From the NCBI GenBank assembly GCA_018830565.1, contig JAHJRX010000003.1:1-48923 (forward strand): DNA of 48,923 nucleotides, in the 5' to 3' direction. Position 1 is the stretch's first letter, and the number at the start of each line of letters is the position of its first letter. This document shows positions 9,678-31,822 of this stretch, in pieces. The position numbers and the translations under genes were made by a program. The notes beneath the pieces were generated by a model, which was not told where the DNA came from, did not search any database, and saw only the letters and a list, made by a program, of their open reading frames with translations. The DNA is from a bacterium. Lineage in GTDB: Bacteria; UBA9089; JAHJRX01.

Positions 9678-9816
9678 GTAAGTGTTCAGCTATCAGCCTT
9701 CAGCTTGGACAAGGCCTTACAGCTCAAAAGCGGAAGACACAAAAGGTAGAAATGCTTCGTTTTGCCTTGATTTTATGGTCAAAGCTTTCTACTTAAGCTT
9801 CAGGCTGAATGTTTAT
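9678..9816. repeat. Intergenic repeat family E, copy 2
   Basis: Left end gtaagtgttcagctatcagc; right end gcttcaggctgaatg is an imperfect inverse. The right half, read on the minus strand, carries the core gctttgaccataaaatcaag shared with the copy at 19203. It occupies most of the livH/livMG gap; the remaining 100 bp to 9921 is AT-rich, contains a ttcgcaaacc patch resembling family B ends, and has no gene. Confidence 0.55.
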
Positions 9817-18304: not shown

Positions 18305-18709
18305 ATGATTGGAGTGGTGGTGGTTAGCCACCAAAATTTATCAGAAATTTTAATAGAAACAGCTATTTCTATTATGGGGCATCAAGAAGATATTACTCCA
18401 GTAACATTTTTTTCTCATGAAGATTTAGAAGATCTAAAAAAGAAGATTATTTCAGCCATTAAGAAAGTAGATTCTGGAGGAGGAGTGGTGGTCTTTACTG
18501 ATTTATTAGGGGGAAGTTGTTGTAATGCTTGTGCTGAAATATTAGATAAAGAAAAAATAGTGGTCATTACTGGTTTAAACATAGCGATGTTATTAGATAT
18601 TATGGTTCATAGAAAATTATCTAATTTTAATGAGGTCGTCAAATTAGTTATGTTAGCTGGAGTAAAAAGTATTAAGAACTTAAAAGAGATAATAACCAAG
18701 AATGAGTAA
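18305..18709 (+). CDS. PTS mannose-type EIIA component
   Basis: 134 residues of the ManX-IIA/DhaM-like fold. His9 in VVVVSHQNLSEIL is the predicted phospho-acceptor from HPr. The loop VVFTDLLGGSCCNACAEIL near 60-78 is the family's T-D-L-x-G-G-S motif. It starts the PTS set, is preceded by aaaggag, and overlaps the IIB gene by 8 bp. The transported sugar is unknown, because mannose-family systems carry many hexoses and derivatives. In some candidate-phylum bacteria such systems may be regulatory rather than transporting, but here IIC and IID are present. Confidence 0.92.
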   Translation: MIGVVVVSHQNLSEILIETAISIMGHQEDITPVTFFSHEDLEDLKKKIISAIKKVDSGGGVVVFTDLLGGSCCNACAEILDKEKIVVITGLNIAMLLDIMVHRKLSNFNEVVKLVMLAGVKSIKNLKEIITKNE

Positions 18710-19196
18710 ACAACTTTTAATTGCTCGGATTGATGATCGCCTTATTCATGGACAAGTGGTGGTAGGCTGGGGCAGAGTGATTGGTTTTCAGCTCTACATT
18801 GTCATTAATGATGAAGTAGCTAAGGATAAAACACAGCAAAATTTAATAAAGATAGCCATTCCCGTGGAAGCTAAAGTCTTAATATTCTCAATAGAAGAAG
18901 CTATTGAGAAATTAACTCGGGTAGTAAAAAATAAGAGAGCGATGTTGCTTTTTTCTAATCCTACAGATGTGTTAAAAGTGATAAAAGGTGGATTTAAGAT
19001 TTGTAGCGTCAACTTAGGTGGCTTAAGAAAATCGGAAAAAAAAAGGGAAATTTTACCTACAGTCTTTCTTGATAATGAAAAAATCGAAGTTTTTAAAGAA
19101 TTATCTCTTTTGGGAATTGAAATTGAGTATCGACTTTTACCAGGTGACGAAAAGGTAGACTTTATGGAAGTCTTAAAAAATGGAAAATTTATTTAA
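18702..19196 (+). CDS. PTS mannose/fructose/sorbose-type EIIB component
   Basis: 164 residues, the standard IIB length. The family signature is RIDDRLIHGQVVVGWGR, with His16 the predicted phosphorylation site that accepts the phosphate from IIA. The rest (AMLLFSNPTDVLKVIKGGF, INLGG-like VNLGGLR) matches the family. The last codons lie inside a 23-bp sequence that is repeated at the start of the IIC gene, implying that IIB and IIC once overlapped by about 17 bp. Confidence 0.93.
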   Translation: MSKQLLIARIDDRLIHGQVVVGWGRVIGFQLYIVINDEVAKDKTQQNLIKIAIPVEAKVLIFSIEEAIEKLTRVVKNKRAMLLFSNPTDVLKVIKGGFKICSVNLGGLRKSEKKREILPTVFLDNEKIEVFKELSLLGIEIEYRLLPGDEKVDFMEVLKNGKFI

Positions 19197-19202
19197 TATT
19201 AT
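19180..19202 (+). repeat. 23-bp direct repeat, left copy (original IIC start)
   Basis: An identical 23-bp run starts at 19180 and at 19379. This copy contains the IIB stop and an ATG (19180) with ggaag 9 nt upstream. Translation from it gives only MENLFNIM before a TAA at 19204. The second copy is the start of the present IIC gene. Confidence 0.85.
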
Positions 19203-19336
19203 GTAAGCGTTTAGCCGTCGGGTGCCAGCAGGAAGTTTTGACCATAAAATCAAGACAAAAAAGTCTTTCCTTTACCGCCTTTTTATCTTTTTGTGCCGCA
19301 ATGCCTTATAAAAGCTAAAAGCTGATCGCTGAATTT
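19203..19336. repeat. Intergenic repeat family E, copy 4, inside the IIB/IIC junction
   Basis: Left end gtaagcgtttagccgtcggg, right end aaaagctgatcgctgaat. The core gttttgaccataaaatcaag matches the inverse of the copy at 9678. It is flanked by the 23-bp direct repeat; 19337-19378 is an AT-rich run with repeated atagttatat. Confidence 0.6.
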
Positions 19337-19378
19337 ATATAGTTATATTTATATAGTTATATATGGAAATAGTTATAT

Positions 19379-20098
19379 ATGGAAAATTTATTTAATATTA
19401 TTTATATAGGAATTATAGGAGGGCTTATTAATTTAGATACCACTGTTTTTGCCCAAACTATGATTTCAAGACCATTAGTTACCGCTCCTCTGGTTGGATA
19501 CTTTTTAGGATATCTTTTGGGGTGTCCAGGAGAAGGCTTAAACTTAGGTTTAGTCATTGGAGTTTTATTAGAACTTTTGTGGTTAAATACTTTACCCATG
19601 GGTGCTTCGTTGCCACCTAATGTTTCTTTGCCTTCCACGGTGGGTGTTTCTTTATGCTTACTGATAAAAAAAACAATGGTGGTAGAAATAAATATTTTAA
19701 TTATCATCGTGATCATAGAAGCTTTTATCTTAGGTTCAATCTATGGAAGATTGGAGATATTAACTAGAAATATCTTAAATAAAAAGATAGCTCGAGCAGT
19801 GATTAGCCATGTGAATGAAGGAAAACTTTGGGCAGTAAGTATACTTAATTGGAAATGCATCTCTTATCACTTCTGGTTAGGATTTAGCCTTTGTTTCTTT
19901 TCCATCTTATTTCTCTTTTATCCTACTATCCTTCTTATTAGTTGGTTACCAGCGAAAGTTGTTAAAGGACTTTTATTGGCTAAAACTTTACTTCCTCTTT
20001 TGGGAGTAGCCATCGCTATTAATATGTTTTTTACCAAAAGATTGTTATCTTATCTTATTATTGGTTTTATCTTAGCCTTGGTATGTAAGTTTTCGTAA
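19379..20098 (+). CDS. PTS mannose-type EIIC component
   Basis: 239 residues, slightly shorter than the usual 250-270, with about six hydrophobic segments. The N-terminus GIIGGLINLDTTVFAQTMISRPLVTAPLVGY and the following LGLVIGVLLELLWLNTLPMGASLPPN are the family signature (substrate channel). The ATG at 19379 has no ribosome-binding site; the equivalent ATG with one is the decayed copy at 19180, so expression may be reduced or depend on coupling. The last 26 codons are repeated downstream. Confidence 0.92.
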   Translation: MENLFNIIYIGIIGGLINLDTTVFAQTMISRPLVTAPLVGYFLGYLLGCPGEGLNLGLVIGVLLELLWLNTLPMGASLPPNVSLPSTVGVSLCLLIKKTMVVEINILIIIVIIEAFILGSIYGRLEILTRNILNKKIARAVISHVNEGKLWAVSILNWKCISYHFWLGFSLCFFSILFLFYPTILLISWLPAKVVKGLLLAKTLLPLLGVAIAINMFFTKRLLSYLIIGFILALVCKFS

Positions 20099-20178
20099 TT
20101 AATATGTTTTTTACCAAAGGATTGTTATCTTATTATTTTATTGGTTTTATCTTAGCCTTGGTATGTAAGTTTTCGTAA
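20018..20178 (+). repeat. 80-bp tandem duplication of the IIC 3' end
   Basis: 20018-20097 and 20098-20177 are nearly identical (a few mismatches). The second copy still translates in one frame as NMFFTKGLLSYYFIGFILAL before VCKFS and a stop, against NMFFTKRLLSYLIIGFILAL in the gene. A third, 22-bp piece (20229-20250) repeats the end of the unit (from cttggtatg to cgtaa). Confidence 0.9.
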
Positions 20179-20298
20179 ACGTTCAAGCTGCAGTTAATTA
20201 AAAAGGGTTCTTTTTGGTTCTTTCTTAACTTGGTATGTAAGTTTTCGTAATCGTTCAGGCTACAGCAAAACAGGGGAAGAAAAACTGCAAAATGGGCC

Positions 20299-20402
20299 CT
20301 GTCCAATAAAAAATGCTTAATGAAAGAATGAAAAATTAGTTTTTACCGCCAAAGCACTAAACTATCTTTTTAATTTTTCATTATCTATTGGATAAGGGAC
20401 AG
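20299..20402. repeat. MITE-like inverted-repeat element in the 353-bp IIC/YCF48 gap
   Basis: Left end ctgtccaataaaaaatg; right end, inverted, ctgtcccttatccaatag then ataatgaaaaatt. The ends pair imperfectly around an AT-rich centre. The rest of the gap (20099-20451) holds the IIC duplication and two gtaa(a/t)cgttca(a/g)gct fragments that resemble family E ends; no gene is seen. Confidence 0.5.
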
Positions 20403-20451
20403 TTATTTTTGAAATTAGTTGAACGGTTACAAGTTTTCTTATTAAATTAAG

Positions 20452-21978
20452 ATGAATATATTAGCTATTATCTATCTCTTTGTAATAAGTTTAATATTTT
20501 TTCCGTCTTTGGCCTTGACTAATAGCTACGAAGAACAAGGAACTTATTTGGCAGATAAAAATAAAGCTGCCCTTCATTCTGTATATTTTTGTGATGAAAA
20601 TAATGGTTGGGCTGTAGGTTACCAAGTAAATGTTAAGACTAGCGATGATACAATTAATGATAATGTTGCTTATATTCTTAAGACTACAGATGGAGGGAAA
20701 AATTGGCAGGATATTACTCCCAAGAAAATATTAGAAAAGGGCAAATGGGTTTTTTGGATGGGGGAAAGACTTTATAAAGTCTTCTTTATCGATAAAGATA
20801 ATGGCTGGGTAATAGGCACTCATAGAACTATAGCTAAGACAAGCGATGGAGGAAATAGTTGGAGTGAAATAAATTTTCAGGCAGAGGAAGATAGAACAAA
20901 CGGACATGAAGTCTGGAGAGATATCTTTATTTATCAAGAAGGGGATGCTTATAAAGGCTTCTTGATAGGAGGAAGGTATAAGAATACTGATTATAATTAT
21001 CAAGATGTGGATAATGGGTATAAGCATGAAGGTTTTTTATACCGATATGTTGATGATAATAAGAAAGATAATAATAAAATAGACCTAACTGAAGTAAACG
21101 TCTTTAAAGAAAAGAGGTATAAGCATCTTACTAGTCTAAGTATTAGTTTAGTTAATGGCCATAAGGATGTCTGGGTTACAGGTTATAATTATGAAGGTAA
21201 AAATGATGTTGATAATTTTGGGCTTGTCTATTTCTCTGATGATGGAGGGGTTACCTGGAAAGAGGTAAGTCCTAAGAAAAAAGGGCATTCGGGAAAAGAT
21301 TATTCATTAGCTTGCTATAATAGTATAGCCTTAAGTAGTTACAATGCTTGGGTAGTAGGCACTGATAATACTATCTTGCTTTCCAGTGATTATGGAAATA
21401 GTTGGAAAAACCAAAACTATGAGAAGAAGTTATCCCAAGAAAATCTTAATAAGATATTCTTGGTCACTAATAATCTTGGGTATGCTGCGGGTAATAGAGG
21501 TAACTTATACCTTACTTTAAATGGCGGAGAAACTTGGGAAAAAGATAAAGATATTTCTCTTAAATACTGTGATAAAAAATTTCAAGGAATACATTTTCCT
21601 ACCCTCACTAAGGGATGGATAATTGGAGAAGGAGAGGTAGAAGGGAAAAACATCACTATCTTAAAGTATCTTCAAAGTGAAGAAATTTATTCGAACCAAG
21701 AAAAGGTGGTCATTTATCCTAATCCTTTTATCCCTAACGATTATCTTGAGAAGACAGGAAGTTATAATAGTGGGATTACCATAGAAAATTTATTTCCTTA
21801 TAGTTCTATAAAGATATTTACTACTTCCGGAGAGTTTGTTAAAGAACTTTCCCTCGCTGATGCTTACGGAAGGATCATTTGGAAAGTTGATAGTTCTATT
21901 TCCAGTGGCTTATACTTACTTGCTGGAAAAAGTAAGAATAATAAGAAAACCCTTGGGAAAGTAGTCATTATTAAGTAA
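20452..21978 (+). CDS. Secreted YCF48/BNR-repeat beta-propeller-like protein with sorting-type C-terminus
   Basis: 508 residues. A signal peptide (1-22) is followed by repeated Trp/Gly-rich blades: DENNGWAVGY...LKTTDGGKNW, DKDNGWVIGT...AKTSDGGNSW, YFSDDGGVTW, SYNAWVVGTDNTILLSSDYGNSW, NNLGYAAGNRGNLYLTLNGGETW. These are the YCF48/BNR-type blade motifs of beta-propellers. Residues 425-508 (VVIYPNPFIPNDY ... SGLYLLAGKSKNNKKTLGKVVIIK) form an FlgD/T9SS-like C-terminal Ig domain. It is probably exported; the function is unknown. It interrupts the PTS genes and is flanked by repeats on both sides, suggesting insertion into the operon. Confidence 0.75.
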   Translation: MNILAIIYLFVISLIFFPSLALTNSYEEQGTYLADKNKAALHSVYFCDENNGWAVGYQVNVKTSDDTINDNVAYILKTTDGGKNWQDITPKKILEKGKWVFWMGERLYKVFFIDKDNGWVIGTHRTIAKTSDGGNSWSEINFQAEEDRTNGHEVWRDIFIYQEGDAYKGFLIGGRYKNTDYNYQDVDNGYKHEGFLYRYVDDNKKDNNKIDLTEVNVFKEKRYKHLTSLSISLVNGHKDVWVTGYNYEGKNDVDNFGLVYFSDDGGVTWKEVSPKKKGHSGKDYSLACYNSIALSSYNAWVVGTDNTILLSSDYGNSWKNQNYEKKLSQENLNKIFLVTNNLGYAAGNRGNLYLTLNGGETWEKDKDISLKYCDKKFQGIHFPTLTKGWIIGEGEVEGKNITILKYLQSEEIYSNQEKVVIYPNPFIPNDYLEKTGSYNSGITIENLFPYSSIKIFTTSGEFVKELSLADAYGRIIWKVDSSISSGLYLLAGKSKNNKKTLGKVVIIK

Positions 21979-29288: not shown

Positions 29289-30349
29289 ATTTAGAAAATT
29301 ATGGAGTTATCAATAGATATCGTGAGTTTTTACCAGTAAGTGAGAATACTCCTATTGTTACTTTAAATGAAGGAAATACTCCTTTAATTTTTGCTTCTAA
29401 TTTAAGCCAGTATCTTGGTAGCGAGATAAAGTTATATCTTAAGTACGAAGGTTTAAACCCTACAGGTTCATTTAAAGATCGTGGCATGACCGTGGCTGTT
29501 TCTAAAGCCAAAGAAGAAGGTGCTCAGATCATTATCTGTGCCTCTACTGGCAATACTTCCGCTTCTGCGGCTGCTTATGCCGCCAAAGGAAGGCTAAGAT
29601 GCGTGGTTTTAATTCCAGAAGGAGCCATTGCCTTAGGTAAGTTAGCTCAAGCTTTAATCTATGGAGCCCAAGTTTTAGCCGTAAAAGGGAATTTTGATGA
29701 AGCTTTAAGTTTGGTCTTGGAGATTACTAAAAGATATCCTATTACTTTAGTTAATTCCTTAAATCCCTATAGATTGCAAGGACAAAAGACCGCTGCTTTT
29801 GAAATATGTGATCTTTTAAAGAAAGCACCTGACTATCATGTTATTCCAGTAGGAAATGCTGGTAATATAACTGCTTACTGGATGGGATATAAAGAATATA
29901 AAGAAAAAGGAAGAATTAACAATCTCCCTAAAATGGTAGGATTTCAAGCAGCCGGGGCAGCTCCTATTGTAGAAAAAAGAGTCATAAAAGACCCCAAAAC
30001 TATTGCTACGGCCATTAAGATAGGAAATCCAGCTAGTTGGAAAAAAGCAGAAGAAGCAAGAGATGAATCAAAAGGTATCATTGATAAGGTTACCGATGAA
30101 GAGATCTTATTAGCTTACAAATTATTAGCTAACTTAGAAGGTATCTTCGTAGAACCTGCCTCAGCTGCTTCGATAGCTGGCATAATAAAAAAGAAGCAAG
30201 AAAACTACTTTCCAAAAGAAGCTACTATTGTCGCAGTGCTTACTGGGCATGGCTTAAAAGATCCCGACTGTGCCATAACGGAAAGTAAAAAGATTACCTT
30301 GGTGGGAGCTAATATAGAAGAGATCCGAAATGCCATAGGATTAAAGTGA
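29285..30349 (+). CDS. thrC: Threonine synthase
   Basis: 354 residues of the short threonine synthase type. It turns O-phosphohomoserine into threonine with PLP, bound at Lys64 in [10 protein letters not shown]. Phosphate loop [13 protein letters not shown] near 188-200; SASVAGI-like [10 protein letters not shown] near the C-terminus; the end is [15 protein letters not shown]. The 4-bp overlap with hom implies coupled translation. Its last codons lie in the first unit of an 84-bp tandem array. Confidence 0.96.
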
Positions 30350-30632
30350 GTCTTTAGCTCTTGAACAGTGCAAGGAAGAAATTGGGTGCGATATCGATAT
30401 ATTGAGATCCGAAATGCCATAGGATTAAAGTGAGTCTTTAGCTCTTGAACAGTGCAAGGAAGAAATTGGGTGCGATATCGATATATTGAGATCCGAAATG
30501 CCATAGGATTAAAGTAAGTCTTTAGTTCTTGAACAGTGCAAGGAAGAAATTGGGTGCGATATCGATATAGAAGAGATCCGAAATGCCATAGGATTAAAGT
30601 AAGTCTTTAGTTCTTGAACAGTGCAAGGAAGA
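30312..30632 (+). repeat. 84-bp tandem array, nearly four units, at the thrC/apgM junction
   Basis: Units start with agatccgaaatgccatagg at 30321, 30405, 30489 and 30574 (84, 84 and 85 bp). Each has a copy of the thrC 3' end, a stop, and the sequence cagtgcaaggaag. The last, partial unit provides the apgM ribosome site (caaggaag) just before the ATG at 30635. Units 1-2 (agtgag, gctctt) and 3-4 (agtaag, gttctt) differ, and unit 4 restores the exact thrC end peptide [11 protein letters not shown]. Confidence 0.95.
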
Positions 30633-30634
30633 TT

Positions 30635-31822
30635 ATGAAGTATATAATTATTGTCGGCGATGGGATGGCTGATTATCCATTAGAAGAGTTAGGAAATAAA
30701 ACTCCTCTTCAAGTAGCTCGGACGCCAAATTTTGATAAATTAGCTAAGGGAGGTATGGTAGGTTTAGCTAAGACTATTCCCGATGGCTTATCACCAGGAA
30801 GTGATGTAGCTAATCTTTCTATTTTAGGTTATAATCCCAACACCTATTATCCTGGAAGAGCTTCGTTAGAAGCAATAAGCCAAGGAATTATCTTAGAAAA
30901 AGAAGAAATAGCCTTTAGGTGTAATTTAGTAACGGTTGAAGATGGAATTATGATAGATTATAGTGGGGGACACATTACTACTTTAGAGGCAGAAAAATTT
31001 ATAGCTTTACTAAATCAAAGAATGGGTAAGGATAATTTAATATTTTATCCCGGAGTGAGTTACCGTAATCTAATAATCACCTCTCTTCTGCCAGTAGAAA
31101 GTTTACCAAGTTTAATTTGCTTTCCACCCCATGATATTACGGGAAAGAATATTTTAGAATATCTACCTAATCATGAGCTAATTAAAGAGATAATGTTTAC
31201 TTCGCAAAATATATTAAAAGAAAACAAGCTAAACTTAGAGAGAAAGCAAAGCAATAAAAGAGAAGTAAGCATGGTTTGGCTTTGGGGTCCAGGTTCTTTA
31301 CCTTCTATGCCCAAGTTTAGTGACCTATTTTCTTTAAAAGGGGCTAATATTGCGGCGGTAGATTTAATAAAAGGGATAAGCAAGAGCATAGGTTTTGAAG
31401 TTATAAAAGTAACAGGAGCTACTGGTTACTACGATACTGATTATCAAGCTAAAGCTAATTATGCTCTCCAGGCTTTGGAAGAGTTTGACTTGGTTTATAT
31501 CCACATCGAAGCACCGGACGAAGCTTCTCATAATGGAGAGATAAGTGAGAAAATCAAAGCGATTGAAGAAATAGATCAGAAAGTATTAGGAACAATCTTA
31601 GAAAAAGTAGAAAGATATCAAGATTACAAAATTTTACTCATTACTGACCATTATACACCTGTTTCTTTAAAAACTCATACTAAAGAAATAGTTCCTTTTA
31701 TTGTTTATGGAACTTCTATCGAAAAAGATGACATTGTTCTTTTTGATGAAGAAAGTGCCAAGGATAGCTCTCTTTATTTTGAAGAAGGATACAAATTAAT
31801 GGAGTGGTTTATAAACAAGTAG
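30635..31822 (+). CDS. ApgM-family enzyme; probable homoserine kinase substitute
   Basis: 395 residues from ATG 30635 (MKYIIIVGDGMADYP), chosen over the upstream TTG because the repeat array supplies aggaag directly before it. It is the archaeal-type, cofactor-independent phosphoglycerate mutase fold (alkaline phosphatase superfamily): GDGMADYPLEEL, SPGSDVANLSILGYNP around the catalytic Ser, and metal-binding HIEAPDEASHNG and ITDHYTPVSLKTHT. A subset of this family found beside hom and thrC, in genomes lacking thrB, has been proposed to be homoserine kinase (TIGRFAM 'proposed homoserine kinase'). The hom-thrC-apgM-lysC order and absence of thrB here fit that proposal. Phosphoglycerate mutase remains the alternative. 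Confidence 0.85.
   Translation: MKYIIIVGDGMADYPLEELGNKTPLQVARTPNFDKLAKGGMVGLAKTIPDGLSPGSDVANLSILGYNPNTYYPGRASLEAISQGIILEKEEIAFRCNLVTVEDGIMIDYSGGHITTLEAEKFIALLNQRMGKDNLIFYPGVSYRNLIITSLLPVESLPSLICFPPHDITGKNILEYLPNHELIKEIMFTSQNILKENKLNLERKQSNKREVSMVWLWGPGSLPSMPKFSDLFSLKGANIAAVDLIKGISKSIGFEVIKVTGATGYYDTDYQAKANYALQALEEFDLVYIHIEAPDEASHNGEISEKIKAIEEIDQKVLGTILEKVERYQDYKILLITDHYTPVSLKTHTKEIVPFIVYGTSIEKDDIVLFDEESAKDSSLYFEEGYKLMEWFINK

What the first reader, a model, noticed from the sequence alone, without database searches (positions are those of the whole stretch)
19180..19401. IIC start duplicated around a repeat element, leaving a decoy mini-ORF
A 23-bp sequence at 19180 and again at 19379 flanks a family E element. 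The first copy has ggaag at a correct distance and encodes only MENLFNIM; the second, the actual IIC start, has no ribosome-binding site. This looks like an insertion with a long target duplication, or a tandem duplication filled later. It may lower IIC relative to IIA/IIB.
Basis: partly seen in the sequence, partly recalled or inferred. Interest (0 to 1): 0.65.

Follow-up and report, generated by a model that had tools for sequence, protein, structure and literature searches.

The report
Mobile repeat between duplicated gene start
A small, decayed mobile DNA repeat sits between two copies of the spot where two sugar-transport genes once overlapped; both proteins survive, but the second gene's start is now 182 bases away from the end of the first, so the two are probably no longer translated in step.

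Summary
A perfect 23-bp repeat (19180-19202, 19379-19401) flanks a repeat element between the IIB and IIC genes of a mannose/sorbose-type PTS operon. A same-family relative (L005/G001) has the site empty: one copy, with the IIC ATG overlapping the IIB stop by 17 nt. That settles insertion plus duplication.

The element (19203-~19332) is a decayed MITE. Its terminal repeat is GTAANCGTTCAGC (79 genome hits against 9 for the control pattern; hundreds in phylum relatives). The family makes 8-bp target duplications, and the same terminal repeat bounds IS66-type transposase genes in relatives. It therefore looks like an IS66 (ISBst12-group) MITE. An 8-bp rule makes a 23-bp target duplication unlikely. 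The 46-bp stretch after the element is built of slipped 14- and 16-bp tandem repeats of IIC-start-like sequence. Best model: a short tandem duplication of the IIB/IIC junction, plus MITE insertion into the first copy and erosion of the element's right tip.

The 'no RBS' claim does not hold: both starts have equally weak SD-like sites (-3.4 and -3.3 kcal/mol). What was probably lost is IIB-IIC overlap coupling. Any effect on IIC level is untested. A locally complex but ordinary mobile-element event.

The parts
18305..18709 (+). PTS EIIA (mannose/fructose family)
   Evidence: PF03610 7.3e-24
18702..19196 (+). PTS EIIB (sorbose family); its last 17 nt are the first 17 nt of repeat copy 1
   Evidence: PF03830 4.5e-44; sequence
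19180..19202 (+). repeat copy 1: end of IIB plus relic IIC start (MENLFNIM-stop)
   Evidence: empty site in L005
19203..19332 (+). decayed IS66/ISBst12-type MITE; left terminal repeat GTAAGCGTTTAGCC, right tip eroded after GCTGAA
   Evidence: 73% identity over 107 bp to the two-ended copy at window 9678-9816, E 2.5e-10; terminal-repeat family
19333..19378 (+). AT-rich stretch made of tandem slippage units (ATTTATATAGTTAT x2.1, ATAGTTATATATGGAA x2.1, the last running into the second copy) resembling pieces of the IIC start
   Evidence: TRF; repeat D5 19332-19356 vs 19385-19409, 84%
19363..19395 (+). second mini-ORF MEIVIYGKFI-stop whose TAA overlaps the present IIC start as the IIB stop once did
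   Evidence: read directly from the sequence; its own start has no SD
19379..19401 (+). repeat copy 2: actual IIC start
19379..20098 (+). PTS EIIC, intact; stop codon TAA comes from a MITE GTAA end
   Evidence: PF03609 2e-24; 71% identical to L005 IIC from residue 1
20013..20172 (+). 80-bp tandem duplication (93%) of the IIC 3' end
20247..20430 (+). second, two-ended MITE of the same superfamily with an exact 8-bp target duplication AAGTTTTC (20239-20246, 20431-20438)

Best explanation
Ancestrally IIB and IIC overlapped by 17 nt and IIC was probably translated by coupling to IIB termination. In this lineage a short stretch of the junction (about 31-37 bp, ATGGAAAATTTATTTAATATTATTTATATAG plus a few bases) was tandemly duplicated. 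IIB kept its end in copy 1 and IIC its start in copy 2. An IS66 (ISBst12-group) MITE then inserted into copy 1 after ATTAT, presumably with its usual 8-bp target duplication; its right tip and that duplication later eroded, and the AT-rich spacer grew by 14- and 16-bp slippage. Shown: insertion plus duplication (empty site in a relative), family identity, the family's 8-bp rule, the slippage units. Inferred: the order of events, loss of coupling, and that IIC now starts independently from a weak SD-like GGAAA supplied by the 16-bp slippage repeat.
For: Empty site in L005/G001 with the 17-nt IIB/IIC overlap. Terminal-repeat family: 79 hits against 9 for the reversed control, up to about 650 in phylum relatives. 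8-bp target duplications: 10 of 137 candidate pairs with at least 7/8 matches against 0.84 by permutation; two 68-bp copies in the relative L005, 8/8 and 7/8; two more exact in other relatives. The same terminal repeats bound IS66-transposase genes (PF03050) in L232-L234. Published ISDge4 (ISBst12 group) has ends GTAACTGCTCAGCA and an 8-bp repeat (PMC12898284). The bases right after the element (ATTTATATAG) are those that follow the insertion point in intact IIC; that 10-mer occurs 3 times in the window, all here. TRF units. The same operon shows a clean 8-bp MITE insertion plus tandem duplication at the IIC 3' end.
Against: The repeat copies end exactly at the element boundary, as a true target duplication would. 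The right tip and 8-bp duplication of this copy are not recognisable, so the 8-bp rule is carried over from relatives of the element. The similarity of the spacer to IIC is only suggestive once its AT-rich make-up is corrected for (p 0.06). No same-genus genome shows an intermediate. Window and relative are draft assemblies.
Confidence: 0.6

Rival explanations
1. Direct insertion with an exceptional 23-bp target duplication; the element's right tip was later lost and the spacer grew by slippage.
For: The repeat is perfect and ends exactly where the element begins. Variable duplications of 3-26 bp are reported for the YPAL element of Yersinia (PMC2229807).
Against: The readable target duplications of this family here are 8 bp and none is 9 or more. 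46 bp of non-element sequence separate the recognisable element end from copy 2.
Confidence: 0.18
2. MITE inserted first with an 8-bp duplication and broke IIC (leaving MENLFNIM-stop); a later tandem duplication or template switch restored the IIC start by copying the left flank, and a second MITE copy was lost.
For: Flank-plus-terminal-repeat tandem duplications next to this MITE do occur: 20077-20265 and the 86-bp array at L166:1757-2309.
Against: Needs a broken intermediate and an extra precise loss; the second copy here carries no terminal-repeat tip.
Confidence: 0.17
3. Assembly artefact in a draft genome with short repeats.
For: The window is a contig of an 86-contig draft genome.
Against: Both reading frames (IIB end, IIC start) are intact across the junction, and the spacer has its own unique sequence.
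Confidence: 0.05

Closest known systems
IS66 family, ISBst12 group (for example ISDge4 of Deinococcus geothermalis, PMC12898284)
   Same: Ends begin GTAAC..TTCAGC/CTCAGCA; 8-bp target duplications; IS66-type transposase genes bounded by this terminal repeat in phylum relatives.
   Different: The window's element is about 130 bp and non-coding; no IS66 transposase (PF03050) was found in the genome itself, so it has no resident helper that we could detect.
Bacterial MITEs in general (RUP, ERIC, YPAL; reviewed in PMC2229807)
   Same: Short, non-coding, inverted ends, many copies, near genes.
   Different: A different terminal repeat and target rule (8 bp, GTAA ends).
Overlapping, translationally coupled gene pairs (here PTS EIIB/EIIC)
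   Same: The relative has a 17-nt overlap with no SD before IIC (-0.4 kcal/mol).
   Different: Here the stop and the start are 182 nt apart.

Membership tests
IS66/ISBst12-derived MITE | Terminal inverted repeats beginning GTAA | tested here: met
   Family: two-ended copies. This copy: left end met, right tip eroded after GCTGAA.
IS66/ISBst12-derived MITE | 8-bp target duplication | tested here: inconclusive
   Met for the family; not readable at this copy because its right junction is rearranged.
IS66/ISBst12-derived MITE | Shared ends with an autonomous IS66 transposase element | tested here: met
   L232: 1505-bp element, one 476-aa open frame, ends GTAACCGTTCAC; L233, L234 with similar ends. 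None shows a clear 8-bp duplication of its own.
IS66/ISBst12-derived MITE | No coding capacity, multiple copies | tested here: met
   About 130 bp, no ORF of 60 aa or more; 79 termini genome-wide.
IS66/ISBst12-derived MITE | Mobilised in trans by the transposase | not testable with these tools
   Needs an experiment.
Element with a long (23-bp) target duplication | Duplication directly abuts both ends | tested here: not met
   46 bp lie between the recognisable right end and copy 2.

The most novel reading that the evidence does not exclude
Insertion of this MITE family sometimes provokes template-switch duplications of the flanking sequence, so that genes hit at their ends are rebuilt around the element. 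IIC carries such events at both ends, and the slippage unit upstream of IIC has rebuilt a weak ribosome site and a coupling-like mini-ORF (19363-19395).
Probability: 0.12. Interest if true: 0.5.

Novelty: new member of a known kind. Interest (0 to 1): 0.27.

Why it matters
It is a clear case, with an empty site in a relative, of a MITE landing at an overlapping gene pair without destroying either gene, because the overlap was duplicated. It also points to a very abundant IS66-type MITE superfamily in this candidate phylum (no description of it was found in the papers searched), which would help gene-start calling and annotation there.

Tried and rejected
Rfam: nothing in the element. RNA fold of 19175-19420 is no more stable than shuffles (z 0.56), so no structural switch. 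No terminator-like site, and promoter-like sites are no more frequent than in shuffles, so a promoter or terminator role for the element is not supported. A resident transposase was sought: PF03050 and PF01609 gave no hit in the genome. A general rule of long duplications around this MITE was tested in 57 fetched stretches: exact repeats of 18 bp or more that flank or contain an element end were clear only here, at the IIC 3' end and in L166, so it is not a rule. More distant PTS relatives have varied IIB/IIC spacing and other gene orders and did not help with the order of events. Paper searches for IS66-type MITEs found only general material.

Full report
What is there. The window carries a mannose/sorbose-type PTS operon: EIIA 18305-18709, EIIB 18702-19196, EIIC 19379-20098, a YCF48-like repeat protein at 20452, EIID 22127, HPr 22958 and enzyme I 23231. 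The 23-bp sequence ATGGAAAATTTATTTAATATTAT occurs exactly twice in the window, at 19180 and 19379, and nowhere else. Shuffled sequence of the same make-up gave no repeat longer than 14 bp at such distances. Copy 1 is not just a decoy: its first 17 nt are the last codons and stop of IIB, read in another frame.

The empty site. The nearest relative (L005, the same locus as G001 in the same family; IIB 68% and IIC 71% identical) has a single copy. ATGGAAAATTTATTTAGTATTATTTTTATAGG starts IIC and overlaps the IIB stop by 17 nt. Joining the two flanks of the window gives a sequence that aligns with the relative without a gap. So the window state is derived: something was inserted and 23 bp were doubled.

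The element. 19203 to about 19332 begins with GTAAGCGTTTAGCC and is 73% identical over 107 bp to another copy in the window, 9678-9816, which has both ends. The terminal motif GTAANCGTTCAG (one mismatch allowed) has 79 hits in the 1.7-Mb genome against 9 for the reversed control, and exact hits number up to about 650 in relatives of the same phylum against 0-3 for the control. Paired copies are about 40-310 bp long. Among candidate pairs, matching flanks are in clear excess at 8 bp: 10 against 0.84 expected from permuted flanks, none at 9 or more. Examples are AAGTTTTC, AATTATAG, TATTATTC and AATAAGGA. Two 68-bp copies in L005 have 8/8 and 7/8, and copies in other relatives show the same. In relatives, IS66-type transposase genes (PF03050) are bounded by the same terminal repeat; L232 is a 1505-bp element with one 476-aa open frame. 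The ISBst12-group element ISDge4 has ends GTAACTGCTCAGCA and made an 8-bp repeat on transposition (PMC12898284). I therefore file the element as a decayed IS66/ISBst12-type MITE. The genome itself has no detectable IS66 transposase.

Why 23 bp. A family that duplicates 8 bp should not leave 23. The right side of the element is also not a clean junction: after GCTGAA the terminal repeat is lost, and 46 bp of AT-rich sequence follow before copy 2. That stretch consists of a 14-bp unit twice and a 16-bp unit twice, the latter running into copy 2. It opens with ATTTATATAG, which is what follows the insertion point in IIC and is found in the window only at this locus; corrected for composition this is suggestive, not proof (p 0.06). 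Collapsing the slippage units leaves a tandem pair of about 31-bp junction sequences with a MITE in the first. The simplest history is junction duplication, then MITE insertion in copy 1, then erosion. In that order IIC was never broken. A direct 23-bp target duplication and an insertion-first history remain possible; variable duplications of 3-26 bp are on record for YPAL (PMC2229807).

The other end of IIC. A two-ended MITE of the same superfamily lies at 20247-20430 with an exact 8-bp duplication. The IIC 3' end before it is tandemly doubled (80 bp, 93%), and the stop codon of IIC is the TAA of a MITE end. L166 shows a third place where MITE end plus flank is tandemly repeated, in 86-bp steps. 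Duplication near this MITE thus recurs but is not the rule.

Consequence for translation. In the relative, IIC has no SD (-0.4 kcal/mol) and overlaps IIB, which suggests coupling. In the window the IIC start is 182 nt beyond the IIB stop. The SD-like energy is -3.3 for IIC and -3.4 for the relic start, against -7 to -9 for well-equipped genes. The GGAAA upstream of IIC was made by the 16-bp slippage repeat. A second mini-ORF (19363-19395) ends across the IIC start as IIB once did; it has no SD of its own and may be incidental. There is no stable RNA structure, terminator or promoter excess in the element. Reduced IIC output is plausible and unproven.

Verdict. Real, well explained and ordinary in kind; the unusual part is the double rearrangement around one gene. 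The abundant IS66-type MITE superfamily of this phylum may deserve its own description.

Noticed in passing
window 20013-20172 and 20157-20265: 80-bp tandem duplication of the IIC 3' end and further copies of CTTGGTATGTAAGTTTTCGTAA next to a MITE; the IIC stop codon derives from the MITE end.
   Followed up: partly
L166:1757-2309 (G000:C31): Array of 86-bp tandem units, each made of flank plus a MITE terminal repeat, ending in a two-ended 83-bp MITE.
   Followed up: partly
window 30312-30650: 84-bp tandem repeat array (about four units).
   Followed up: no
L005:4487-4554 and L005:1042-1109: 68-bp MITE of the same kind in the relative, upstream of IIA and elsewhere, with 8-bp target duplications.
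   Followed up: yes
G013 and G018 (same phylum): More than 640 exact terminal-repeat hits per genome: a very large MITE load.
   Followed up: no
window 20452-21978: YCF48-like BNR-repeat protein gene between EIIC and EIID, with no SD; a similar gene follows IIC in the relative L005.
   Followed up: no
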